Position numbers and translations under genes: made by a program. A DNA stretch of 64,000 nt from Charina bottae (Eukaryota; Chordata; Lepidosauria; Squamata; Charinaidae): positions 15,388,001 to 15,452,000 of the forward strand of contig JALMGJ010000006.1 of assembly GCA_023362775.1 (NCBI GenBank), written 5' to 3'. Shown here piece by piece: positions 4,937 through 63,281 of the stretch. The notes beneath the pieces were generated by a model. The model saw only the letters and a list, made by a program, of their open reading frames with translations. It was not told where the DNA came from and searched no databases. Each line of letters starts with the position of its first letter. Position 1 is the stretch's first letter.

Positions 4937-5561
4937 CAGAGGTTTCCAAACTGTATGTCGGGACACGTTAGTGTCTCGGCTGCAGTGTCTGGGTGTGTCG
5001 CGGCTGCTGCTGCCTCCGAGCCCTGCCAGGATTCCACACAGGTCCTAGTGCCTGCCTTGTGCCTTGCTGCCTCCAAACCTACTGTGATTCCACGCAGGTC
5101 CTAGTGCCTGCCTTGTGCCTTGCTGCCTCCAAACCTGCCCTGCCAGGATTCCACGCAGGTCCTAGTGCCTGCCTTGTGCCTTGCTGCCTCCAAACCTACC
5201 CTGCCAGGATTCCACGCAGGTCCTAGTGCCTGCCTTGTGCTTTGCTGCCTCCAAACCTGCCCTGCCAGGATTCCACGCAGGTCCTAGTGCCTGCCTTGTG
5301 CTTTGCTGCCTCCAAACCTGCCCTGCCAGGATTCCACGCAGGTCCTAGTGCCTGCCTTGTGCCTTGCTGCCTCCAAACCTGCCCTGCCAGGATTCCACGC
5401 AGGTCCTAGTGCCTGCCTTGTGCTTTGCTGCCTCCAAACCTACTCTGCCAGGATTCTGCACAGGTCCTAGTGCCTGCCTTGTGCCTTGCTGTAAGAGTGT
5501 GTCGCGAAATGATGCATGTCTAAAAAGTGTGTCACCAACATGAAGAGTTTGGAAAGCTCTA
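4937..5561 (+). mobile_element. hAT MITE copy B, expanded minisatellite core
   Basis: Inverted ends cagaggtttccaaac and gtttggaaagctcta. Flanks are ctttagag (4929-4936) and ctttagat (5562-5569), a 7/8 target duplication. It is the longest of the six relatives because its internal 61-bp repeat is present about eight times. Confidence 0.9.
5030..5490 (+). repeat. 61-bp minisatellite inside hAT MITE
   Basis: About eight head-to-tail units, each starting near gattccacgcaggtcc and containing gtgcctgccttgtgc and tgctgcctccaaacc. Starts fall near 5030, 5086, 5147, 5208, 5269, 5330, 5391 and 5452. The first spacing is shorter (about 55 bp); the rest are 61 bp. Units differ by single substitutions. 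Confidence 0.93.
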
Positions 5562-12371: not shown

Positions 12372-13145
12372 CAACTGAATCTTATTTATTTTATTTATTT
12401 TATTTATATTTCTAACTTATATCACCGCCCATCTCCCCCCATTCCGGAGGGGGCTCTGGGCGGTTTACACCAAGCCAGCAATTAAAACATATAAAAATTT
12501 ATAAAATAGAATACATAATTTAATTAAATATATAAGATCCAAGAGGCTCTGATGTTAGGCTTTAAAGAACCCTATGGAGCAAGCCAACCCCAAGAGGAGC
12601 TATTACTCCCCCAATCCCAAGCGAGGTGGCAGAGCCAGGTCTTCAGTTGTTTCCGGAAGGTCATAAGTGTGGGGGCTAGCCTCACCTCCAGGGGCAGAAT
12701 ATTCCAGAGGGCGGGTGCCACTGCCGAGAAAGCCCGCCTCCTGGACCCCGTCAGGTGGAATTCTCTTATAGACGGGGTCCGAAGCAAGCCCTCTCTGCAT
12801 AGCCGGGTGGAGCGGGTCGATGCTCTGGGGATGAGGCGGTCCTTTAGGTAACCTGGTCCCATGCCATGTAGGGCTTTAAAGGTGACAACCAACACCTTGA
12901 ATTGGACCCGGAAGCAAACCGGTAACCAATGCAGCTCACGCAGCAGAGGTGTCACATGTGCCGACCTTGGGGTACCCATAACTGCGCGCGCAGCCGCATT
13001 CGGGACCAGTTGAAGCTTCCGGATACTCTTCAAGGGTAGCCCCATGTAGAGCGCATTGCAATAGTCTATGTGGGAGATGACCAGGGCATGAGTGACTGTA
13101 CGGAGGGCGTCTCCTCCAACTTCACCAACCTGCTGTTCAGTAGAA
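12372..13145 (-). pseudogene. L2-like LINE 3' end with ORF2 C-terminus
   Basis: On the minus strand an open frame (13156 to 12572) encodes the C-terminal part of a LINE reverse transcriptase. Blocks include SHIDYCNALYMGLP, KLQLVPNAAARAV, HVTPLLRELHWLPVCFRVQF and TFKALHGMGPGYL, then ALWNILPLEVR and RKQLKTWL. They match the region after the RT palm in L2/CR1-group LINEs. Below it lies the 3' UTR, with an accgcccatctcc / ctctgggcggttta box and an AT-rich tail. It is 5' truncated, as usual for LINE insertions. Exact clade is inferred from memory. Confidence 0.85.
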
Positions 13146-13470
13146 GAGAAATACAATGCATAAGAACAAAAACAGAATCAAACACAAAAGTTACGACTCT
13201 ATATTTTCCATAGAGCGGGTACCAAAGCCCATTTTTTTTCCCTTGCAAAAACTGTGGTTTCTATCAAAAGTCTGAATAAAGGACCATTATGATAACAAAT
13301 GAAACAGCTCAGCTTTCGCTCCAGAGACTGGCAAAGAAGCTTTCCCTGGAGGTGGCTCAGATAGCATTTCCCTGTTAACCTTATCACCGAGGGGTGTGTC
13401 TTTCCTTTGCAAAGCGGCAACATGTTACTGGGAGAGAAATTCAGATCAGCTAATTTAGGTTAACTGCTTA

Positions 13471-19480: not shown

Positions 19481-19855
19481 CCCCACCTTCCTCCTCCTAT
19501 TTTCCCCACAACAACAACCCTGTGAGGTGAGTTGGGCTGAGAGAGAGTGACTGGCCCAAGGTCACCCAGCCGGCTTTCATGTCTAAGGTGGGACTAAAAC
19601 TCTCAGTCTCCTGGTTTGCCATTGGCTCCTTCCTAGGGCTGAGAGAGAGTGACTGGCCCAAGGTCACCCAGCCGGCTTTCATGCCTAAGGCGGGACTAGA
19701 ACTCTCAGTCTCCTGGTTTGCCATTGGCTCCTTCCTAGGGCCGAGAGACGGACTGGCCCAAGGTCCCCCAGCCGGCTTTCATGCCTAAGGCGGGACTAGA
19801 ACTCTCAGTCTCCTGGTTTGCCATTGGCTCCTTCCTAGGGCCGAGAGAACTCTTC
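19481..19855 (-). mobile_element. Sauria-like SINE with tandem 102-bp units
   Basis: Minus-strand SINE in which an internal segment is repeated about three times with a 102-bp period (for example gctgagagag at 19536 and 19638). Each unit ends tttgccattggctccttcct. Because 102 is a multiple of three, the units stay open as 34-residue repeats on both strands. That is a by-product, not a protein. Confidence 0.9.
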
Positions 19856-25709: not shown

Positions 25710-26378
25710 ATTATTATAGTTGGTCGCACATCAGCCAGATGTTTAGACTGGATTTGGCATTTTTGTCCACCTGTCGAGTCCTTCCCAAGGACCTGGGATA
25801 GGCAGATGTTGTTGTTCGATGGTGTTAAAAGTATCGTCGCAGGATGGAAGCTGTTCCAAGTAAAGCTGCCTTTTGCCGTTGACTGATAGTGATTTTGTCA
25901 ATGCCGATGGCATTCAAGTAGTGCTCCAGATGTTTTGGAATTGCACCCAAGGCGCCTGTTGCTACCTTTGCTTTCTTTTGCCACAGTCGTTCTACTTCTA
26001 TTTGCAGGTCTTTATATTTTGTGATTTTCTCCAGTTCTTTCTCTTCTCTTCTGCTGTCTCTAGGTATTACAGTGTCCAGTATCCAGACTTTTTTTTGTCT
26101 CTTATCAACAATTGTTAAGTCGGGGGTGTTGTGTGGCAGATGCTTGTCTGTTTGAATTCTAAAGTCCCAGAGCACTTTAGCTTCTTCATTGTCTATTACT
26201 TTGTCTATTTTGTAGCCCCACCAGTTCTTGCTTGCAGGCAAGTGGTATTTCTTGTAGATATTCCAATGCACCATTGTTGCTACTTTGTCATGCCATTGTT
26301 TGAAGTCAGTCTGTGCGATCTTCTTGCAGCAGCTAACTAGGTGGTCCACTGTTTCAGCTTCTCCTCCTCCTCCTCCTG
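25710..26378 (-). pseudogene. R4/Dong-like LINE 3' end with restriction-like endonuclease
   Basis: The minus-strand open frame (26505 to 25825) encodes about 180 residues of LINE C-terminus after a repeat-derived start. In order: a C/H cluster (HLVSCCKKIA ... HDKVATMVHW), KYHLPASKNWWG, then the nuclease core with PDLTIVDK, KVWILDTVIPRDSR and KITKYKDLQIEVERLW. The end is GALGAIPKHLEHYL and ISQRQKAALLGTASILRR. PD ... D-x-V-I-P ... K-Y fits a PD-(D/E)XK nuclease of the R4 clade (Dong/Rex6). The 3' UTR continues to about 25710. It is 5' truncated, but the frame from the C/H cluster to the stop is intact. Confidence 0.8.
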
Positions 26379-26411
26379 TTGTTGTTGTTGTTGTTGTTGT
26401 TATTATTATTA
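26363..26411. repeat. Triplet microsatellite (CTC)n-(TTG)n-(TTA)n
   Basis: About five ctc, eight gtt and three att triplets in succession at the 5' truncation of the LINE fragment. It gives the T- and G-rich start of the minus-strand frame. Confidence 0.95.
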
Positions 26412-26582
26412 GCATTAATGAGTAACCAGTGGACTCCATGTGATTCCCACTATCCCTTCTATGGCCATCCAAGTCCCTGAGCAACACCGGAGAGTACAGG
26501 GACAATATTTTCAGGGTTGGGGCAGCTGTTGTTAGGTAGTTAAGATGGAAAAAGGGGTGCCTTAAGCTTGCAGAGGTAGCAG

Positions 26583-27028
26583 TTTATTTATTTATTTAAT
26601 TTTTATCCCGCCTTTATTATTTTTATAAATAACTCAAGGCGGTGAACAGACCTAATACTCCTTCCTCCTCCTCTTTTCCCCACAGCAACAACCCTGTGAG
26701 GTGAGTTGGGCTGAGAGAGAGTGACTGGCCCAAGGTCACCCAGCCGGCTTTCATGCCTAAGGTGGGACTAGAACTCTCAGTCTCCTGGTTTGCCATTGGC
26801 TCCTTCCTAGGGCTGAGAGAGAGTGACTGGCCCAAGGTCACCCAGCCGGCTTTCATGCCTAAGGCGGGACTAGAACTCTCAAGCTCCTGGTTTCCCATTG
26901 GCTCCTTCCTAGGGCTGAGAGAGAGAATGATTGGCCCAAGGTCACCCAGCTGGCTTTCAGGCCTAAGGCGGGACTAGAACTCTCAGTCTCCTGGTTTCTA
27001 GCCCGTTGCCTTAACCACTAGACCAAAC
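26583..27028 (-). mobile_element. Sauria-like SINE with tandem 102-bp units
   Basis: Full minus-strand copy: (ttta)n, then tcccgcctttattattttta and ataactcaaggcggtgaac (tail), cccacagcaacaaccctgtg, about three 102-bp units, and the head (ccttaaccactagaccaaa). The units share the junction tttgccattggctccttcct with the loci at 19.5 and 38.4 kb. Confidence 0.92.
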
Positions 27029-38384: not shown

Positions 38385-39000
38385 TCAGTGATATTTGTGG
38401 TGGTTAAGGCAACGGGCGAGAAACCAGGAGACTGAGAGTTCTAGTCCCACCTGAGGCATGAAAGCCGGCTGGGTGACCTTGGGCCAGTCCCTGTCTCTCA
38501 GCCCTAGGAAGGAGCCAATGGCAAACCAGGAGACTGAGAGTTCTAGTCCCACCTTAGGTATGAAAGCCGGCTGGGGGACCTTGGGCCAGTCCCTGTCTCT
38601 CAGCCCTAGGAAGGAGCCAATGGCAAACCAGGAGACTGAGAGTTCTAGTCCCGCCTGAGGCATGAAAGCCGGCTGGGTGACCTTGGGCCAGTCCCTGTCT
38701 CTCAGCCCTAGGAAGGAGCCAATGGCAAACCAGGAGACTGAGAGTTCTAGTCCCACCTTAGGCATGAAAGCCGGCTGGGGGACCTTGGGCCAGTCCCTGT
38801 CTCTCAGCCCTAGGAAGGAGCCAATGGCAAACCAGGAGATTGAGAGTTCTAGTCCCGCCTGAGGCATGAAAGCCGGCTGGGTGACCTTGGAAAAATCACT
38901 CTCTCTCATCCCAACTCACCTCACAGGGTTGTTGTGGTGGGGAAAATAGGAGGAGGAAGGAGTATGTTCGCCGCCTTGAGTTATTTATAAAAATAAAGGC
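38385..39000 (+). mobile_element. Sauria-like SINE with about five tandem units
   Basis: Plus-strand copy: head (gtggttaaggcaacgggcga), about five 102-bp units from 38410 to 38890, then a single tail (cacctcacagggttgttgtg, cgccgccttgagttatttat). Neighbouring units alternate between two slightly different versions (cacctt / cgcctg), which suggests duplication of a two-unit block. Confidence 0.93.
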
Positions 39001-39050: not shown

Positions 39051-39458
39051 TTGATAGGCCATTTACTTTTTCCTTTGAACTTTATGCTTCACTTAAAATT
39101 TCAGAGGGGGGCTCACATGAAAGAATACCTTACCATATATTCAGTTCTTCCCCCAAAAAAAGAAAAAACGTGTTGAAGGAAAACGAATATATCAAGGAGA
39201 AATTGAGTGTTTTGGCATCCATCTGTTAGGGACTGTTTTTCCCTATAGTTTTGCATGAACATTGCCCATACAGATAGTCCTCGTTTAGCAACTGCCTTGT
39301 TTAGTGACTGTTTGCACGACGGTGATGAAAAACTAACTTTATGACCAATACTTGCATTTACGACCTTTGCAGGTCTGTAAAGCAAAGGAAAGCTGAAGTA
39401 AGATCATAAGCACAGTTGTGGCTTCACTTAGCGACCACTTCACTTAACAACCAAGTTG

Positions 39459-39941
39459 TGTTGTATATATTTTTTATGTCTGTAGAATATGTGGCTGAGT
39501 TTTTTAAAAAGCCAGGCCTCAAAACTTTTTTCCTGTTTGGGCTCAGAGAGCACATGTTCACCCCCCACTCAGGAATGCTAATTGCCCCCAGGTGCCGGCC
39601 AGTCTGAGAGTTTTGACCAATCAGAATTAGTTGTTTGAGCTTTGCCCATATTGGGAATCTGTTGCCTAGGTGTTTTTGGTCACATGGTGGATCCTGTCCA
39701 CTCAGAGGCTGGTCAGGTAAAGGTTTAAAATGTAGATGCCTTTTGTTCTTTTGTTCTTTCTCTACATTCTGCTCTCTGCTATCTAAATGGCTATGTTAAT
39801 CAACCATGCCATGCTTTGGCTAAAGAAGAAGATTCAAGGTTTGTTCCTATGTTTCTGTTTTAAATAAAGCAACGTTTTTACTACAAACTTATCTCTTGTT
39901 TTTTCCATAACTCTGATCACAAATTTTATAAAAATACAAAA
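39459..39941 (+). repeat. copia 5' LTR
   Basis: Starts tgttgtatatat and ends aaaatacaaaa. The end was set from the position of the agttg duplication after the 3' LTR; with a classical ..CA end it would stop at 39938 (and 44538). Carries aataaa at 39863-39868, probably near the R/U5 border. Confidence 0.95.
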
Positions 39942-39942
39942 G

Positions 39943-39975
39943 GTTCTGTGCCCAGCAATTGCTTCTGGATCAGAG
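39943..39975 (+). promoter_or_regulatory. Candidate primer binding site(s)
   Basis: Immediately after the LTR, gttctgtgcccagca (39943-39957) matches 13 of 15 bases of the complement of the anticodon arm of vertebrate initiator tRNA-Met, as I recall that tRNA. Drosophila copia uses this internal, half-tRNA primer. A second candidate, tggatcagag at 39966-39975, resembles the conventional plant copia site but lies 25 bp from the LTR. Confidence 0.45.
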
Positions 39976-40162
39976 ACAAAACTTATGGAAATAAAAAGAG
40001 AAGAAAGCTGAACTGATTCAATCTACATCTGGAGAGGCTTCCTTTGTTTTTTTGAAACTTGCCGGCAGTTACAGGAAGTTTCCATTGGAGGCGGAGTTTT
40101 GCCTCGTGTTTGCAAGCCTCGTGGTGTTTTTTGGATTTCTACAACAGGGGAGAGAAGGAGCC

Positions 40163-43100
40163 ATGGCTGCTGCTGCTACAGCTTCAAATTTTCAAGGTAT
40201 GCTCCTGGAAAGGCTTTCTAATTCTAATTATTTGAACTGGTCTTTGAAAATGGAAAGTTTCTTGAGGAGAGACAATTTATGGTCTGCAATTTCTGAACAA
40301 ATTCCTCAGAATCCAGATCAAGCCTGGTTGAGGAAAGATGAGAAATGCAAAGCCTCCATTATTTTGGCTGTTCAGGATGATCAGCTTATTCACGTGAGAG
40401 GCAAAGAAACTTCCAAAGACTTATGGGACTATTTGCGTGATTTATATGTGAAAACTAGTCCAGGCAGCAAGGTTATTTTAACGAAAAAACTGTACAAGGC
40501 TCACTTGCCTGAGAATGGAAATTTGCCTGATCATCTCCACAAGCTTCAGAATTATTTTGTGGAACTTCAGGAACCTGGGATGGAATTTACCCCCCTGATG
40601 AAAGCCTACATTATGCTTTCTTCATTGAATGAGTCCTGGGACACTTTAATTTGCTCCATGGAGGGAATCCCAGAAGCTGATTTAAATCCATCGTTTGTGT
40701 CTACCCGGCTGCTTGCTGAGTGGGAGAAGCGACAAGAAAAAGCTTCCTCCATTTCTACAATAAAGTCTTCTCGTGGCCAGCAGAGGGAGCGGAAGAGCTC
40801 TGAATTTCAAGTTTCTGCATTATCCAGCAGGCGATGCTTTACCTGTGGATCCTCTGCTCATCTCCAAAAGGACTGTGTTCAAAAGAAGAAGACTTCAAAG
40901 AAGAAAGAAGAAACTTCTGGAAAGAAGATTCTTCATGCAACAGTTGTTGAGAACTCTGATAATAAAGATTTGTGGGTTCTTGACAGTGGGGCCAATTCTC
41001 ATATATGTCACAATAAAGATTCCTTTCTGTCTTTGTCTAAAACTAACAAACAAAAAGTTTCCTTAGCAGATGGATCTGTATCCAAGATCGTGGGTGAAGG
41101 TGAGATCAATCTTCCATGTTTGGGGGAAACTGTTAAAAATGTTTTGTTTGTGCCTAATTTTCAAAGCAATCTCTTGTCTGTGGGGCAGCTAGTAGCCTCA
41201 GGTTATGTTATAACTTTTAAGAAAGAGGGTTGTGATATTAGAAAGAATGGTAAAATGGTTGCAAAGTGTTTGCAGAAAGATTCTCTGTACATTGTACAAA
41301 ATGCTGAAAAGCAGCAAATTGCTAAAGCCAAGGCTGTTTTTGAAAATAAGCCCTTGCATGACCAGTGCATCCATTTATTACATAGGAGATTTGCTCATGC
41401 TAATTTTAAGTACATTTCTCAAATGCCTAGTTATTCTGCTGATTTAAAATTGAAGTCTTGTGATAAATATCTAGACTGTGCAGTTTGCAAGGAGAATAAA
41501 ACCACAAGGGCTCCTGTGAAGAAGTTTTCTGATAGGTCCACCTCTAGGCCTCTAGAGATAATTCACTCTGATGTAATAGGTCCATTTTCTCCTAGTCTTG
41601 GGGGAGCAAGGTACATTTTGACCTTCATAGATGATTTTTCCAGGTACACATTCATTTATTTGCTGAAACACAAAGATGAGGTCTTTGATAAATTTAAGGC
41701 TTTTGTGGCTTGGGCGAATGGAAAATTCCCAAGGCCAGTGTCTGCTTTGCAATCAGATCGCGGTGGCGAGTATTTATCCTCAAAGTTTAAAAGCTTTTTG
41801 TTAGAAAAAGGGATAGAACACATTTTGGCTAACCCTTACACTCCTGAACAGAATTCTGTTGCAGAGAGAAAAGGCAGAACACTGCAGGAAGCAATGATGT
41901 GTTTGCTGAAGGATGCTAGTTTGCCTTTTAGGTATTGGGGAGAAGCTGTTACTACAGCGTGTTATGTGCAGAACAGGCTGTTTAGCAGTGCAATTCAGGA
42001 TGTGCCTTTTCGTTTGTTCTATGGTGTGAAGCCTAAAGTAAGCCACCTCAGGGTGTTTGGAAGCACAGCTTGGGTCCACATTCCCAAACAGCTGAGGCGC
42101 AAGGGGGCTTCCAGAACAAAGAAAGCAATCTTTGTAGGGTATGAACAGAGTCAGAGAAGCTACAGGTTCATACTGGATAATCAACTGATAATTAGTAAAA
42201 GTGCTTCTTTTGCTGAGCAGAATTGGGACAAAATAAACTCTAGTTCTTCAGTTGATTTATCCATGGGGGAGCAGCAAAGTCTTGCTGATGGTGATTTGCA
42301 GGAATCACCCAGTGAAGTCATTGATCAGGAAGCTGACTTGTCTGGAAAGTCAGAGGTTTCTGAGGGCAATGGTGGGAAACAGAGTGTTAGTCCTGTCCTA
42401 CCTCGCAGGTCTGAAAGGATTAATAAGGGAGTTCCTCCTGATCGTTATCAAGTAGATGTTGTGAAGGCTTTTCACATTCACACAGAGCCTGAGTCTCTGG
42501 AAGAAATTAAAGAAATGCCAGCTGAAATAGCTAAGTGTTGGCATGAAGCCATGCAGCAAGAGTTGGATTCCTTAAAGGAAAATAAAACTTGGAAACTAGT
42601 AAGTTTGCCTCCTAATCAGAAGGTTTTAGGTTGTAGGTGGGTGTTCAAACTGAAAAAAGATTCTGATGGCAAAATTCAGAAGTACAAAGCAAGGTTGGTA
42701 GCAAAAGGTTTTGCTCAAAGAAAAAATGTGGATTATGACAAAACTTTTGCTCCAGTGACAAAAGCTGAATCTATCAGGTTGCTTTTAAAGGTTGCTGCCA
42801 TGAAGAAACTGTCTGTTTATCACTATGATATTCAAACTGCTTTTCTGTATGGTGACTTGGAGGAAAAATTGTTTATGCAACAACCTCCTGGTTATGAAAA
42901 AGAAAAACATCTTGTGTGTGAATTGCAGAAATCCATCTATGGTTTAAAACAAGCCGCGCGTTGTTGGAATATTAAAATGGATAATATTTTGCAAAAATTT
43001 GGATTTCAGAAGGGAATTGCTGATCCTTGTGTGTATGTAAAAAATGATGAGCAAGGTGTAATGTACTTGTGCTTGTATGTGGATGATTTGTTGCTGCTCA

Positions 43101-44041
43101 CTTCATCTGATGAACAGAAGCATTCCTTTGAGGTTTGTATGAAAAACAATTTCTCATTGAAATGTCTTGGAGCAGTCAACAATTACTTAGGATTAGAAAT
43201 TCAGAGGGAAAAAGATGGCAGTTTTCTCATAAGCCAGAGCAGTAAAATTAAGAAGCTGCTGGAGGATTTTAAAATGCAGGACTGCAAGTCTGTCTCCTCC
43301 CCCATGCTTCCCGAGTTTCTAAAAGAGGAGGGGGAGAAGGGGAATGGTGAGTCATCTGAAGGAGATAGTTTCAGATCAGCCATTGGCAGTCTTCTTTACA
43401 TTGCAAATAACAGCCGTCCGGACATTTCTAACAGTGTGTCCATTTTGAGCAGGTTTGTGGAAAATCCCACATCTGCTGCAAAGTCTGGGTTAAAAAGGCT
43501 GTTTCGTTATTTGCAAGGCACCAAAGATTTTTGCTTAAGGTTGTCTGCTACAGACACAGAAGAAAAGTTAGAATGCTGGTGTGATTCAGATTGGGCTGGA
43601 GATCTCAGTGATAGGAAGTCTACTTCTGGAAGTGTAATTCAATTTGCAAAGTCCACTATTGCTTGGTTTTCCAGAAAGCAGACTGTAGTAGCCATCAGCA
43701 CAGCTGAAGCTGAATTTTATGCTTTAGCACAACTGTGCAATGAAGTAATTTGGTTTACTCAATTGTTGCAAGACATTGGAGTCATTTTAAGCCAGCCTGT
43801 AACAATTCATGAAGACAATCAAGCCTGTATTCATTTGGTTTTATCTGAAAGTTCCAGAAACCGCACAAAGCACATTGATGTGCGTTTTCATCTTGTTAAA
43901 GATTTTCTAGCCAAGAAAAAGGTTGTTTTGAAATACTGTGATACTAAATTAATGTTGGCTGATATCTTAACCAAGCCTCTAGTTGCCAGTAGGCACAGTG
44001 AGTTAATTACCAAGCTGGGTTTGTTTCCATATTCTTTCTAG
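40163..44041 (+). CDS. gag-pol: copia gag-pol polyprotein
   Basis: 1292 codons from the first in-frame ATG (gagccatggc) to TAG. The frame is open from 39995, but no earlier ATG exists in it. Numbering is from this ATG. Gag, about 1-250: a UBN2-like capsid region, then a CCHC zinc knuckle C225-x2-C-x4-H-x4-C238. Protease: DSGA at 274-277. Integrase: H407-x4-H412 and C439-x2-C442 zinc site, catalytic D470, D532 and E568, with D-35-E spacing. Reverse transcriptase: D889 (YDIQTAF) and YVDD at 972-975. RNase H: D1141 (CDSDWAGD), E near 1182-1184, D1218, D1239 (KHIDVRFH). All catalytic positions are kept, with no frameshift or stop. Gag and Pol are in one frame, as in Drosophila copia. It makes virus-like particles, copies its RNA to DNA and integrates it. 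Confidence 0.97.
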   Translation: MAAAATASNFQGMLLERLSNSNYLNWSLKMESFLRRDNLWSAISEQIPQNPDQAWLRKDEKCKASIILAVQDDQLIHVRGKETSKDLWDYLRDLYVKTSPGSKVILTKKLYKAHLPENGNLPDHLHKLQNYFVELQEPGMEFTPLMKAYIMLSSLNESWDTLICSMEGIPEADLNPSFVSTRLLAEWEKRQEKASSISTIKSSRGQQRERKSSEFQVSALSSRRCFTCGSSAHLQKDCVQKKKTSKKKEETSGKKILHATVVENSDNKDLWVLDSGANSHICHNKDSFLSLSKTNKQKVSLADGSVSKIVGEGEINLPCLGETVKNVLFVPNFQSNLLSVGQLVASGYVITFKKEGCDIRKNGKMVAKCLQKDSLYIVQNAEKQQIAKAKAVFENKPLHDQCIHLLHRRFAHANFKYISQMPSYSADLKLKSCDKYLDCAVCKENKTTRAPVKKFSDRSTSRPLEIIHSDVIGPFSPSLGGARYILTFIDDFSRYTFIYLLKHKDEVFDKFKAFVAWANGKFPRPVSALQSDRGGEYLSSKFKSFLLEKGIEHILANPYTPEQNSVAERKGRTLQEAMMCLLKDASLPFRYWGEAVTTACYVQNRLFSSAIQDVPFRLFYGVKPKVSHLRVFGSTAWVHIPKQLRRKGASRTKKAIFVGYEQSQRSYRFILDNQLIISKSASFAEQNWDKINSSSSVDLSMGEQQSLADGDLQESPSEVIDQEADLSGKSEVSEGNGGKQSVSPVLPRRSERINKGVPPDRYQVDVVKAFHIHTEPESLEEIKEMPAEIAKCWHEAMQQELDSLKENKTWKLVSLPPNQKVLGCRWVFKLKKDSDGKIQKYKARLVAKGFAQRKNVDYDKTFAPVTKAESIRLLLKVAAMKKLSVYHYDIQTAFLYGDLEEKLFMQQPPGYEKEKHLVCELQKSIYGLKQAARCWNIKMDNILQKFGFQKGIADPCVYVKNDEQGVMYLCLYVDDLLLLTSSDEQKHSFEVCMKNNFSLKCLGAVNNYLGLEIQREKDGSFLISQSSKIKKLLEDFKMQDCKSVSSPMLPEFLKEEGEKGNGESSEGDSFRSAIGSLLYIANNSRPDISNSVSILSRFVENPTSAAKSGLKRLFRYLQGTKDFCLRLSATDTEEKLECWCDSDWAGDLSDRKSTSGSVIQFAKSTIAWFSRKQTVVAISTAEAEFYALAQLCNEVIWFTQLLQDIGVILSQPVTIHEDNQACIHLVLSESSRNRTKHIDVRFHLVKDFLAKKKVVLKYCDTKLMLADILTKPLVASRHSELITKLGLFPYSF

Positions 44042-44045
44042 TCAT

Positions 44046-44058
44046 AAAAAAAGGGGAG
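44046..44058 (+). promoter_or_regulatory. copia polypurine tract
   Basis: aaaaaaaggggag directly abuts the 3' LTR start (tgttg). It primes plus-strand DNA synthesis. It lies 5 bp after the gag-pol stop. Confidence 0.93.
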
Positions 44059-44541
44059 TGTTGTATATATTTTTTATGTCTGTAGAATATGTGGCTGAGT
44101 TTTTTAAAAAGCCAGGCCTCAAAACTTTTTTCCTGTTTGGGCTCAGAGAGCACATGTTCACCCCCCACTCAGGAATGCTAATTGCCCCCAGGTGCCGGCC
44201 AGTCTGAGAGTTTTGACCAATCAGAATTAGTTGTTTGAGCTTTGCCCATATTGGGAATCTGTTGCCTAGGTGTTTTTGGTCACATGGTGGATCCTGTCCA
44301 CTCAGAGGCTGGTCAGGTAAAGGTTTAAAATGTAGATGCCTTTTGTTCTTTTGTTCTTTCTCTACATTCTGCTCTCTGCTATCTAAATGGCTATGTTAAT
44401 CAACCATGCCATGCTTTGGCTAAAGAAGAAGATTCAAGGTTTGTTCCTATGTTTCTGTTTTAAATAAAGCAACGTTTTTACTACAAACTTATCTCTTGTT
44501 TTTTCCATAACTCTGATCACAAATTTTATAAAAATACAAAA
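44059..44541 (+). repeat. copia 3' LTR
   Basis: Identical to the 5' LTR and offset by exactly 4600 bp. Carries aataaa at 44463-44468, which could terminate transcripts on the RERG sense strand. Confidence 0.95.
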
Positions 44542-44585
44542 AGTTGCCGGTCCCAATTGTGGTCGCTAAACGAGGACTACCTGTA

Positions 44586-45829: not shown

Positions 45830-47170
45830 TACCTACAGTATCTCTGTTTGCTATCCATCCTTGCTTTAACCATGTTCATACACAGCTTCATACAATGACT
45901 TTTGTTTAAACTTATGACCTACCTTTTTTGAGGATCTCATCAACTCTCTCTCTAACTGAAGTCTTCCTCTTCTCAATCAATTTACTCTCTCTTCATCTAT
46001 TTGTTTTGAAATATGATCCTAATTCATTCTCTACATGACCAAACCACCTCAAGATACTTTCATACTGGTCACTCAGCCATGTATTCAATCCATATTGACT
46101 CAGCACCCATTAATTCTTAACTACCCCATTGTGATTGCATCCAATTTACTTTTTATGTCTCTCCTGACATACCTAACTCTCGCTTCCGTATAACAAAAAA
46201 AGGCAGAACTCTCTGACACAGTCATTTTTCGCTTCTTTCAAAAAACATCAATTCCTCACACCATATTACATGCTACCCACTATCTTTCTAACAACATTTG
46301 CATGTCTGAAAAATTCTCCATCCATTTTCCCATTCTTAATAAACATTCTACCAAAGTACACAAATTCATCTACTTGCTCTAGTTTTTCATTGTTTATGTA
46401 TAACTTGCAATTGTTCACTGTAATTTTTTTTTTGTCAAAAGGACAATTATAGTCTTTGGTCTTTGATACATTAGTTTTCAGGGCCATCCTCCTCATTGCC
46501 TCATACAATTGTCTAACATTCACTGCAAATCATTGGGTGCTCAACCAAGAACATAGCGTTATCTGTGTGCAAAAGTGCTTGTGCTCTCACACCCCCAACC
46601 AAGCCGCCTCTAAGGTCAACAAAACCATTCTTCATACACTTGCCCATAAATCCATTAAAAAAACACAGGGTATCACACATCTTTATCTTACTCTTCGCTC
46701 AGTGCTGAACTATTTGCTAAGCATTCTATTTATTCTCAAACATACTTTACTTCCCATGTTGCTCTTATCACATTCAGCAAACCTTCCGACCATATTAGTG
46801 CAAAGCATTCCATAATTCAAGCCTATTCACTTTAACATAAGCTTTCTCTAAGTCAACAAACACAATAAACTTTATCTTTCAGCTATTTCTTCTTCATGAT
46901 TTGCTGAAGAGCAGATATCTGGTCTGTATAACCCTATTCAGCATAAAACTGCACTGGATTTCCCAGATTTTGTTCACTTTCATTTTCTTTTGTACCCTTT
47001 AATTCCAAATTCTGCCGAACACCTTCCCAGTTAACAACCTAATTTCCCTGTACTTTTTTCACCCCTCTCTTTGTACAGGGGGGTGATAACAGCATTTGCC
47101 AGTTATTGGGGACACATGCAAATTGCAGACATACATTAATCAAGTCACATACCCATTCCATAAGCAAACT
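45830..47170 (-). pseudogene. Degenerate LINE reverse transcriptase
   Basis: Read backwards from about 47160, the minus strand gives in order: PNNWQMLLSPLCTERGVKK, GYTDQISALQQIMKK, KVYCVYVDLEKAY (RT fingers/palm), MRRMALKTNVSKTKDYN, EQVDEFVYFGRMFIKNGK, LYGSESWVCQ and a WFGH-like block near 46040. The frame changes several times, so it is a pseudogene. The clade is not resolved; the block order fits a non-LTR element of RTE or jockey type. The palm YxDD box was not located. Confidence 0.65.
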
Positions 47171-48348
47171 GTACCCATATTTTAACATAACTTCACCAAT
47201 TATCCTTTTTCATATATCCCAGTAACATAGCTCCATCATCTTTCCTTACATCCACTTTCCATTCATTCTATTCAGAGATTAGTCAATTAGAGTACTTTTC
47301 ATACAGGAGTTATAGTTTCTTCCCCTGCAGTCATTCTACATTCACTCTCATTTCTTTCACTTCTTTCCTATTATTTCACGTCAATTTTTTCTCAAGGTCC
47401 ATGTAGAAAAAAATGATCTGCCCCACACTCAACACTTCTTGTCACCCTCTCTTAGTCTTTCATCATAAACAATCAAATAAATTGTGCTTTTAGTTTTATA
47501 CTCATTCTTTTCCATACGTGTATATGAATACTTACTGTTTCTCTTGACAAGTTGGATCACCTGGAAACAGGCCATCAAGGACCCTGATAAGTAAATGTCC
47601 TGTAGACAGTGTAGTGGACCCATTACAAAAGAAAGCCAGTGATCACTGTGTATTAGATGCAAGCCCTATTTATAATAAAATCAAGGTTTAAATTCTTGTG
47701 CCTTTTTCTTTTTCCTGGCTAGAATAATGGGCTTGAAACCACTCTCTTTTGGGTAGAAGGATGGTTTCCACCTGTCCCACAGTTTGCTAATTGACTTATC
47801 TGATGTTAAGCTTTTTGCTTCTGACTTTGTGAGAAGCAGCTGTCACGCTTGTGCTTATATCATGTGATTGAAATGAATAGACCATACGTAGATGCTCACT
47901 ACTCCACATTCTTACTCATTCTCCAAATGGTCCTATCACTTTTTCTGCACTGTCTCCTTTTGTTCCTACCAACTCATTTATGTCACTTAGCAAAATCATT
48001 TTTCCCCCTGGATCACATTCATTCAGCGTCTTATACATTTCCCCCCCTAAAACTCATTTCTGGGGTTTTTTTTTATTATTATCACCATTCACTGGGGTAT
48101 AATGTGCAATCTATGGATTCCTATTTTCATATGCACCAAACCACTGCAAAACCTATTCTGAAACTTCCAAAAATGGCCTGAAATTGTTCTGCTGAAGTTC
48201 GGCCATTTTGTTTCCAAATTTCAGTGACACGTTGTGGGACTCCTGTTGGGTGGCCACAAAAGAAGTGTTGATGGGCTCTGCACAGCCCTTGGACTAAGGG
48301 TTTCCATCTCTGCTTTAAAAAAAGTAATATTTTATTTCTACAAAACTG
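47171..48348. other. Intronic sequence, unassigned
   Basis: T/C-rich sequence that may continue the decayed LINE. No clear blocks. Confidence 0.4.
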
Positions 48349-59775: not shown

Positions 59776-60310
59776 ATTTTTTTATTTATTATTCAAATTT
59801 ATCACTGCCCATCTCTACAACAGTAGACTCTGGGCGGTTTACAACAATATCATAAAAACAATTAAAACTTATACAGGTAAAATCCACTAAAATTATAAAT
59901 AGAAAAATCCAAAGATGGTAAGTTCTTAAAAGGAGGGTATTACTAAGCCAACCACCCCCAGGAGGAACTATTATTTCCTTCATTCCAAGCAAGGCGGCAG
60001 AACCAGGTCTTTAAAGAGTTCCTAAAGACCAGGAGCGAGGGCGCCCATCTCACCTCTGGGGGCAAGATATTCCACAGGGCAGGTGCTATCGCAGAGAAGG
60101 CACGCCTCCTGGACCCCGCTAGATGGAGTTCTTTTAGTGATGGGATCCGAAGCATGCCCTCCCTGCATGATCGGGTGGGGCGGGTAGATGTAATTGGGAT
60201 AAGATGGTCCCTCGGATACCCTGGCCCCATGCCATGTAGGGCTTTAAAGGTGATAACTAACACCTTGAATTGGACCCGGAAGCAAACTGGTACCCAATGC
60301 AACTCTATAG
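59776..60310 (-). pseudogene. L2-like LINE 3' end
   Basis: A minus-strand frame (60332 to 59943) encodes ELHWVPVCFRVQFKVLVITF, KALHGMGPGYPRDHLI, ALWNILPPEVRW and FRNSLKTWF. It is the same protein region as at 12372-13145 but a different insertion. The 3' UTR has the cactgcccatctctacaaca and ctctgggcggtttacaac boxes and an AT tail near 59770. Confidence 0.85.
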
Positions 60311-62569
60311 AATATAGAGTTCTATGTACCATGCAGCTAAGGGAAAGAGGTACACACTACTATCCAGTTCCTCCTTGCCAATCTTCTGTTGGAACCACCA
60401 GCACCATGCATGTTCATGTATCACCAGGTGTTAAATTTGATTTAAATGATCAAGTAAAGTGAAATATGTAAGAGGTGATGCCTCTCACCACTTCAGGTAT
60501 GTGTGCCAGTGGTAGACCATGCTCATCTGTGGCATTGCTAATATAATGCCTAGACTCTGTTCACTGCAGTGTGGCTTATGCACATTGTCTTTGAAGATTA
60601 TTCAGCATATTCAGAATAGGAGAGCCAGATGGTTGTTTGGTTTGGAACATAACTCCATAGTATTGAAACTTCTCTACTAGCTTCCTGACCATGTCTGGGT
60701 AGGCCAACTAGTCTTAATTTGCAATACATGCTAAATGCAGAGTTTCCTATCCAAGGCTAAACAAGCTAGGCAAGATGTATTACTGAACTAAGATTTGTGT
60801 GGGTGGAAAATGTACTACATCAAAGCTGATACTGCCTTTTCTGTAGATGTTAACTCCACATAGCTAAGTGAATCACTTTCTTTGGCAAGCCGTGAATATA
60901 ACTTGACCAGTCTCCTAACAGATGAATTCAAGCCTTTGATGAATCTAGAATGGTGGTGATAAGAAACTTGCTTTTGGCATTCAATCATCATTTCCAATTC
61001 CTGGTTTATTTAAAACAAGATTGGGTAATCTGCAGGGCACATGAGGCTTTCAGGCCCTTTTAGGGGTATCCCAGAGATTAGGCAGCCATTGCCACAAGAG
61101 ATATCAACATGTTCATTTTTAGTTTTCCCTCTCTGTCAATTCCCAGGTGGAAATCTGGCCTACTATTGCCCTGAATTCTGTGATTTGTTTTATCCTTTTT
61201 TGGGATATTTGTTCCAAGTACTTTGCCACAAAGATTCCATTTTATATTCTTAATTCATTAATCTTGGGGCACCACATGTCATCACAGCTCAACTCTGGAT
61301 TCCAGGCTATAGTTGATTATCCTTGTTATGCTGAGAACATCTGCAGAGTTACCAACAATACTTATTTTCAGGGATAACTGTATGGAGGCCGAGAGGGAGA
61401 AATCGGGGGGAGAGATTCATATTATTTTAGTCTAGACTATTCTTTAAGAGTGGGCTTCTCTTTAGAACAAGAGTAAAACACATGGTGCCCACCATGGCAA
61501 CCATTTTGTGAATAGGAAGGTCTCTCATTTTGTTTGTATGCTGATCACCCACAATTAGAAATGTGCCCTTGGACCCAGCACATTCCCTGCCTGTGCTTTA
61601 GATGAACTTCAAAATTGGCAAGCCTGCCTTACTGTGTTTAGGAACCCCCTTTGTTCATTCTGCTGTGAGAGGATCCTGGGGTTCCCATTCTGATGGTGCC
61701 ATTAGAAGAAAGTCAAAGTCTTAACAGGAATCTTTTAATTTTCTCTCTCTTCAGACCTAACATTATCCCCATGTTGAAACAGAGTTAACTTTGAGCAATC
61801 ATAATGTTATACTTAAGGTCCATTCCTATCACACCTTTCACTCAGTTGTTCACTTCCAGCATAGCAGTAACCACCCATTGGCATGAATGTTTGCTTATAC
61901 TGGGATTGTTGGTTTTTTTAGGCATATTGTTGTGCTCCCCAACCACAAGTTGTTTTGAAGCGATCCTAGCTGGGCTGTTGTGTCAAGGCTCCAATTGTTC
62001 TGCTTTTTAATTGAAAACTGAATAATATTTTATAACTAGGCCTGATAATCATGCTTGCTCTTAGCAGGTACGGTATGTGGGGGAAAAAACATCTTCAGCT
62101 TGGACTAGCAAGAATTGTGCAGAGTTTCTGAATTGCATTGTTTCTTGTTCAGTCTTAAGGTGGGCTGAACACTTCATTGCCCAGCGAGGAAACCATTGAT
62201 TTTCTCATTTCTAGAGAAACATTGATGAAAGATTTATATGTAAGATCAATTCTATAATATATAAATCATATGATCAACCTGTCTATCCCTGAATTCTGTC
62301 CCCAGACTCCCATTAAAGTTTTCTACAGATTTTTTTTTTTGCCCGTTTAGTTGGCTTAGTGGTGTTTGGTGAGCCCAGACAATATAAGGTAGCTTTGTTT
62401 GTTTCTAATATGCCAGTTATGTAGAAATATGGGCCGTAGGCTAGACCAGGAAGTGAAAAAGTGCATGTTCTCATGGAAAACTAGAATATTAGGACCATAG
62501 AAAGTTGCCTTAGGCTGGTAGACTTTAGAAGCACAATAAACCAACTAAAGAAACAACTCTCTCTCTGTG
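60311..62569. other. Intronic sequence, unassigned
   Basis: No recognised gene or repeat. Confidence 0.5.
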
Positions 62570-62961: not shown

Positions 62962-63281
62962 CAGAGCTTTCCAAACTGTGTGTCGGGACACGTTAGTGTG
63001 TCGGCTGCAGTGTCTGGGTGTGTCGCGGCTGCTGCTGCCTCCGAGCCCTTCCAGGATTCCGTGCAGGTCCTAGTGCCTGCCTTGTGCCTTGCTGCCTCCA
63101 AACCTGCTGTGATTCCGCGCAGGTCCTAGTGCCTGCCTTGTGCCTTGCTGCCTCCAAACCTGCCCTGCCAGGAATCCACGCAGGTCCTAGTGCCTGCCTT
63201 GTGCCCTGCTGTAAGAGTGTGTCACAAAATGATGCATGTCTAAAAAGTGTGTCACCAACATGAAAAGTTTGGAAAGCTCTG
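62962..63281 (+). mobile_element. hAT MITE copy F
   Basis: cagagctttccaaactgtg ... gtttggaaagctctg. Perfect 8-bp duplication gtttaggg (62954-62961 and 63282-63289). About three minisatellite units. Confidence 0.93.

What the first reader, a model, noticed from the sequence alone, without database searches (positions are those of the whole stretch)
39459..44541. Intact, apparently very young Ty1/copia element in a squamate-like genome
Both 483-bp LTRs read as identical, the 5-bp duplication is perfect, and the 1292-codon gag-pol has no stop or frameshift and keeps all the protease, integrase, RT and RNase H catalytic residues I checked. Copia elements are uncommon in amniotes and usually decayed. 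This copy could still be able to transpose.
Basis: partly seen in the sequence, partly recalled or inferred. Interest (0 to 1): 0.88.

Follow-up and report, generated by a model that had tools for sequence, protein, structure and literature searches.

The report
Young, still-spreading reptile copia retrotransposon
The window holds a complete, recently inserted copy of a copia-type jumping gene that, in what looks like a reptile genome, has hundreds of other copies, most of those examined also recent, which appear to swap segments with one another like a sexual population.

Summary
Window 39459-44541 is a complete 5083-bp Ty1/copia element: identical 483-bp LTRs, TSD AGTTG, one open 1292-codon gag-pol and all catalytic residues checked. 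It is no rarity in its 1.80-Gb host assembly: an exact 30-mer over LTR end and primer-binding site (PBS; two positions free) occurs 328 times, an exact LTR start 856 times. Among 40 copies chosen by RT similarity, 30 LTR pairs are identical, 38 have matching 5-bp TSDs and 27 an ORF of at least 1250 codons. In a second sample, 11 of 16 whole LTR pairs are identical. pN/pS is 0.17.

Linkage between sites falls near its long-range level within about 50 bp, so copies look like mosaics. CpG suppression suggests long residence in a CpG-methylating genome.

Apparently active snake copia is in print (PMC11948899): a new member of a known kind. Present mobility is inferred.

The parts
39454..39458 (.). 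target-site duplication AGTTG, left copy
39459..39941 (+). 5' LTR, 483 bp; AATAAA at 39863
39942..39957 (+). primer-binding site, 14/16 to the anticodon half of initiator tRNA-Met (3' end at tRNA nucleotide 40 by my count); C..T form of a two-form PBS
   Evidence: nucleotide 40 from PMC1181622 passage
40163..44041 (+). single gag-pol ORF, 1292 codons plus stop, ATG in GGAGCCATGG
40163..40912 (+). Gag: Retrotran_gag_2, DUF4219; CCHC knuckle; similar to a solved 'Copia VLP protein' (E 1.5e-14)
40973..41206 (+). protease region (Pol_BBD; DSGA at residue 274)
41345..42250 (+). integrase (rve, SH3-like; D-61-D-35-E; similar to solved integrase 7z0h, recalled as Ty1, E 8e-18)
42503..43342 (+). reverse transcriptase (RVT_2, YVDD)
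43583..43879 (+). RNase H motif residues D1141, E1182, D1218, D1239 (motif only)
44046..44058 (+). polypurine tract AAAAAAAGGGGAG just before the 3' LTR
44059..44541 (+). 3' LTR, identical to the 5' LTR
44542..44546 (.). target-site duplication AGTTG, right copy

Best explanation
This is a recently inserted, structurally complete copy of a large Ty1/copia family that has been moving in the germ line of a vertebrate, probably a squamate, within roughly the last million years. Shown from sequence: anatomy, youth of the sampled insertions, purifying selection on gag-pol, copy number, and loss of linkage between sites. Inferred mechanism: RNA made from the LTR is translated into one Gag-Pol protein and packaged, two RNAs per particle. 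Reverse transcription is primed by the 5' half of initiator tRNA-Met (3' end at nucleotide 40). Template switching between unlike RNAs makes mosaic cDNA, and integrase inserts it with 5-bp staggered cuts. This copy landed inside an old DNA transposon.
For: LTRs 100% identical, TSD, ORF. Domains in copia order. 328 LTR-PBS junctions and 856 LTR starts by exact pattern, reversed-pattern controls 0. 30 of 40 and 11 of 16 LTR pairs identical. 38 of 40 (35 at the BLAST ends, 3 after a 2-base shift) and 18 of 20 with matching 5-bp TSDs. By blastn at E 1e-10 only L019 and L020 share flanks. pN/pS 0.171 over 300 pairs of 25 intact copies. The A..G form of the PBS matches the host tRNA stem-loop 16/16. 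r2 between sites 0.42 within 5 bp, about 0.04 beyond 50 bp, shuffled 0.03. The empty site joined from the flanks aligns without gap across the junction to a repeat copy at 29286-29232, 74.5% over 55 bp.
Against: No RNA, protein or new-insertion data, so present activity is unproven. LTR identity could also be kept by gene conversion. The 40 copies were picked by RT similarity. 13 of 40 lack an ORF of 1250 codons. The PBS of this copy has 2 mismatches to the tRNA. Assembly quality is unknown.
Confidence: 0.9

Rival explanations
1. The element is older than it looks: gene conversion or assembly collapse made its LTRs identical.
For: LTRs within one element can convert each other (recalled). L019/L020 share both 300-bp flanks, so some duplication, real or assembled, exists.
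Against: Identity is the rule over many copies (30 of 40; 11 of 16), while their LTRs are only 93.8-99.4% like the window's. A collapse would not keep each copy's own LTR pair, TSD and flanks distinct.
Confidence: 0.06
2. The family entered this lineage very recently from an invertebrate by horizontal transfer.
For: In an RT tree of 38 rows (37 chosen of 240 hits) the window falls with spider, nematode, lizard and unnamed metagenome rows at a fork of 89/98 (not counted as firm), and not as sister of the lizard row. Of the 120 listed hits of comparable length the best is 51% identical.
Against: Cross-codon CpG in the ORF is 6 against 52 (sd 5.6) in synonymous shuffles. ORF CpG o/e is 0.19, below the host-flank mean of 0.29 and within its range of 0.14-0.59. 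This points to long residence in a CpG-methylating genome. Mean synonymous difference among copies is 4.5%. The tree has only one other reptile row.
Confidence: 0.12
3. The apparent mosaicism is recurrent mutation on a star-like tree, or assembly chimeras, not recombination.
For: 64% of differences are transitions. Clumping of differences (variance/mean 2.77) may come partly from uneven constraint and from choosing copies by RT similarity. The switch of nearest relatives (3 of 38 keep one) has no control.
Against: Decay of linkage with distance holds for transversions alone and for common alleles, and about 80% of distant site pairs show all four combinations.
Confidence: 0.1

Closest known systems
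Corn snake Copia LTR retrotransposon (OCA2 amelanistic and CLCN2 stripe insertions; PMC4657000, PMC11948899, passages read)
   Same: Ty1/copia in a squamate; many near-identical copies; evidence of recent insertion.
   Different: 5832 bp against 5083 bp here; 85 copies with over 5000 bp at over 95% identity were reported.
Drosophila copia (Hemivirus type)
   Same: Half-tRNA primer from nucleotide 40 (PMC1181622 passage); Gag similar to a solved 'Copia VLP protein'; single ORF (recalled).
   Different: Gag similarity is remote, and no copia pol sequence was at hand for a tree.
Copia elements of hydrophiine snakes and tuatara (PMC8872380, PMC10709897, PMC7116210, passages read)
   Same: Ty1/copia in lepidosaurs, abundant or recently expanded.
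   Different: Only genome fractions and ages seen in print; no sequences to compare.
Onsen of Arabidopsis (PMC5668417, abstract read)
   Same: High-rate recombination among members of one LTR retrotransposon family during bursts.
   Different: Shown there experimentally in a plant; here inferred from linkage among genomic copies.
Hemicordylus capensis LOC128351321 (P0121)
   Same: Copia-type RT protein from a lizard, 48% identical over 322 aligned residues.
   Different: Not a sister of the window RT in the tree; only a 327-residue RT piece known here.

Membership tests
Ty1/copia (Pseudoviridae) | two LTRs around an internal region with PBS and PPT | tested here: met
   feature list from PMC8515867, whole text
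Ty1/copia (Pseudoviridae) | domain order Gag-PR-IN-RT-RH, integrase before RT | tested here: met
   by Pfam for gag, IN, RT; PR and RH by position and motif
Ty1/copia (Pseudoviridae) | copia-type RT (RVT_2) and gag (Retrotran_gag_2) | tested here: met
   E 1.6e-72 and 8.6e-33
Ty1/copia (Pseudoviridae) | forms intracellular virus-like particles | not testable with these tools
   only Gag similarity to a solved copia VLP protein
Hemivirus | PBS complementary to a short internal segment of the tRNA, 3' end at nucleotide 40 in the anticodon stem-loop | tested here: met
   by sequence only, priming not measured. 16/16 in the A..G form, 14/16 in this copy. Conventional 3'-end PBS: best 7/14 within 39930-40000
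Sirevirus | extra envelope-like ORF after pol; plant host | tested here: not met
   stop at 44041, polypurine tract starts at 44046
Corn snake Copia family | sequence identity above 95% over 5000 bp | not testable with these tools
Autonomous, currently active retrotransposon | germ-line RNA and new insertions | not testable with these tools
   no reads or second individual available

The most novel reading that the evidence does not exclude
The family is a near-panmictic, recombining population of retroelements in a vertebrate germ line, and its PBS dimorphism shows that half-tRNA priming does not rewrite most of the PBS from the primer. The C..T form makes up 183 of 328 junctions although the only iMet-like stem-loop found in the genome encodes the A..G form. 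A possible reason is that copying into the primer stops at the modified base t6A37 (recalled), so only the first three or so PBS bases are re-templated and the variable sites (PBS positions 5 and 8) are inherited from the RNA like ordinary alleles.
Probability: 0.3. Interest if true: 0.72.

Novelty: new member of a known kind. Interest (0 to 1): 0.55.

Why it matters
It adds a reptile copia family, differing in length from the published corn snake element, with strong signs of recent movement. It also offers a natural experiment: hundreds of full-length copies, many of them young, whose shuffled alleles let one measure recombination during reverse transcription, and test what half-tRNA priming copies, in a vertebrate. 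Insertions of a copia element underlie two visible mutations in corn snakes (PMC4657000, PMC11948899), so this family is a candidate source of new variation in its host.

Tried and rejected
Protein search with the Gag region found nothing at E up to 0.001 among 1731 candidates. The RT searches scored only about 8000 candidates each and listed 120, mostly plant and metagenome proteins, so no clade name (Hydra, GalEa, Mtanga) could be assigned. RT-RH against solved structures: no hit. tRNA genes in the up to 300-bp flanks of the 40 copies: none by ARAGORN, so no sign of targeting to tRNA genes. Rfam and ARAGORN on the window: nothing. A tree of internal regions was set aside once linkage suggested mosaics; PBS form needs 14 changes on it against 12.7 for shuffled labels. 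Absence of linkage between PBS form and sites 36 bp or more away does not by itself show re-templating, since most sites in the family are nearly unlinked at that distance. A count of PPT-LTR junctions and a search for other copia lineages in the host did not complete. On rechecking I raised the rival for mosaicism from 0.07 to 0.1, because the identical tract between the window and L010 lies over the RT stretch by which the copies were chosen.

Full report
The element. The two LTRs are identical over 483 bp, with TSD AGTTG. PBS and polypurine tract are in place, and one ORF of 1292 codons carries gag, protease, integrase, RT and RNase H in copia order. Gag resembles a solved protein labelled Copia VLP protein and integrase a solved integrase (7z0h, recalled as Ty1). 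No Pfam RNase H model matched, and gag_pre-integrs is below cut-off. By blastn no second copy or LTR of it lies in the window.

Insertion site. The flanks carry a 26-bp inverted repeat (92%). Joining them with one TSD gives a sequence that aligns without gap across the junction to another repeat copy at 29286-29232, 74.5% over 55 bp. So the element probably sits inside an older terminal-inverted-repeat transposon.

Copy number. The host assembly has 1,804,297,929 bases in 278 contigs. An 801-bp RT query gave 40 scored matches, all printed as 99 or 100% identical, of 1451 candidates. The exact LTR-end plus PBS 30-mer occurs 183 times in the C..T form and 137 times in the A..G form. With both sites free the count is 328, so 8 are of other forms; the three of these among the 100 listed places are C..G. 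An exact 29-bp LTR start occurs 856 times. Of the first 100 listed, all on C1, 76 form 38 same-strand pairs 3.0-4.8 kb apart and 24 are unpaired. Reversed-pattern controls were 0. These are lower bounds, since exact matches were required.

Age. Sample 1 is the window plus 39 copies chosen by RT similarity. 30 of 40 LTR pairs are identical and 39 of 40 differ at no more than one place; there are 7 mismatches in 19,134 site pairs. 38 of 40 have a perfect 5-bp TSD (three after a 2-base shift of the LTR end); the other two, L042 and L043, are one tandem array sharing an LTR. Flanks match only between L019 and L020. Sample 2 is 20 copies that I took from the listed PBS-pattern places, 10 of each form, all on the plus strand. 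Sixteen have both LTRs whole: 11 identical, 12 mismatches in all, at most 5 in one pair. Four had the 3' LTR cut by my fetch limits and show no mismatch in the part seen. TSDs match in 18 of 20. For the window copy, the 95% upper bound on LTR divergence is 0.62%, or 1.3 million years at 2.4e-9 per site per year and 3.9 at 0.8e-9. The rates follow PMC12143202 (passages), which gives 2.4e-9 per generation with 3-year generations in one place and per year in another. Sample 2's mean of about 0.16% gives about 0.3 to 1 million years.

Function kept. 27 of 40 copies have an ORF of at least 1250 codons. After dropping L020 and L043 as duplicates, 25 were compared in 300 pairs: mean pS 0.045, pN 0.008, pooled ratio 0.171; by region from 0.241 (gag) to 0.137 (protease-integrase and linker). 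The source copies were therefore under purifying selection. Median divergence of internal regions is 1.7%, far above LTR divergence within copies, so many different source copies were active, not one.

Mosaics. Over 38 copies, r2 between sites is 0.42 within 5 bp, 0.13 at 5-20, 0.07 at 20-50 and about 0.04 beyond, against 0.03 for shuffled alleles; transversions alone (few close pairs) and common alleles behave alike. About 80% of distant pairs show all four allele combinations. Weaker signs: differences between copies are clumped (median variance/mean 2.77, over 1 in 98% of 701 pairs), and the window matches L010 over four adjacent 300-bp bins yet differs by 24 in another. Those four bins cover the RT stretch by which the copies were chosen, and uneven constraint also clumps differences. 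Only 3 of 38 copies keep the same nearest relative in five segments (no control). The likely cause is template switching between co-packaged RNAs; intra-family recombination is shown for Onsen in Arabidopsis (PMC5668417, abstract). Assembly chimeras are an alternative and need raw reads.

Primer. The 16 bases after the 5' LTR match the complement of initiator tRNA-Met positions 25-40 (my count on a recalled sequence) at 14 of 16. Only one of the window's 63,984 plus-strand 16-mers scored 14. Among 40 copies, 24 carry the C..T form, one of them with a further change at its first base, and 16 the form GGTTATGGGCCCAGCA, a perfect match. One search found the same 22-base stem-loop in the host at C253:508544-508565; the rest of that gene was not read. 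It was the only hit allowing any base at both variable sites and one further mismatch, so no iMet-like tRNA for the C..T form was found. PMC1181622 (passages) states that hemiviruses prime from nucleotide 40, which is where this PBS starts. The two variable sites are 3 bp apart and almost fully coupled (320 of 328), but show little linkage to sites 36 bp or more away (r2 at most 0.16). Why a form without a matching tRNA stays at 56% is open; the t6A37 idea in the novel case is inference from recalled tRNA modification.

History. Cross-codon CpG is 6 against 52 expected, and ORF CpG o/e is 0.19 against a host-flank mean of 0.29, range 0.14-0.59, so the lineage has probably long replicated in a CpG-methylating genome. 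RT relatives are distant: among listed hits the best is 51% identical, to an unnamed protein, and 48% to a Hemicordylus lizard protein, which is not its sister in the tree. Searches scored only the candidates sharing most words.

What is known. (passages of PMC11948899) reports a 5832-bp copia with 85 copies in corn snake, and insertions in OCA2 and CLCN2 differing by one nucleotide, possibly active. One search gives 0.47-1.65% copia in six elapid genomes; one search reports copia expansion in sea snakes; an abundant Mtanga-like copia in tuatara. So an active-looking copia in a reptile is not new as a kind. I saw no report of a mosaic copia family or a PBS dimorphism in a vertebrate in the listings of my ten answered paper searches, none of which was a systematic survey.

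Noticed in passing
L042, L043 (C110 near 42.35 Mb); also C68:9046450 and 9051045: Two elements in tandem about 4600 bp apart; in L042/L043 they share a central LTR. The C68 pair has the same spacing and was not read.
   Followed up: partly
L019, L020 (C110 at 9.27 and 9.19 Mb): Two copies with identical 300-bp flanks on both sides: a segmental duplication or an assembly duplicate.
   Followed up: no
C110 against C1 of G000: PBS-junction places of both forms together are 71 on C110 (249 Mb) and 40 on C1 (255 Mb), binomial p 0.002 (counts taken by hand); several C..T places cluster at 8.8-13 Mb and 239-244 Mb.
   Followed up: partly
L016, L017, L030: LTR 3' ends differ from the usual ...CAAAA...CAACA (canonical TG..CA)...CAAGA and ...CAATA, all in copies with the A..G PBS.
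   Followed up: no
C253:508544-508565 (-): Only one initiator-tRNA-Met stem-loop was found in the 1.8-Gb assembly with up to one mismatch, fewer than I would expect for a vertebrate.
   Followed up: no
window 12572-13177 (-) and 59943-60356 (-): Two related ORF fragments (DNA 75% alike over 300 bp) that look like the C-terminal end of a CR1/L2-type LINE RT (recalled resemblance); 25825-26583 (-) resembles an R4/R2-type LINE end.
   Followed up: no
window 19534-19848, 26708-26998, 38421-38890; 1509-1679, 5020-5491, 63045-63211: Two families of tandem arrays, of 102-bp and about 61-bp units, each at three places in the window.
   Followed up: no
window 46001-48000: Strong GC skew (-0.34), perhaps an old LINE on the minus strand (a guess).
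   Followed up: no
one of 62 window ORFs scanned: A weak Pfam match to NCOA_u2 (E 4.7e-05); which ORF carries it was not determined.
   Followed up: no
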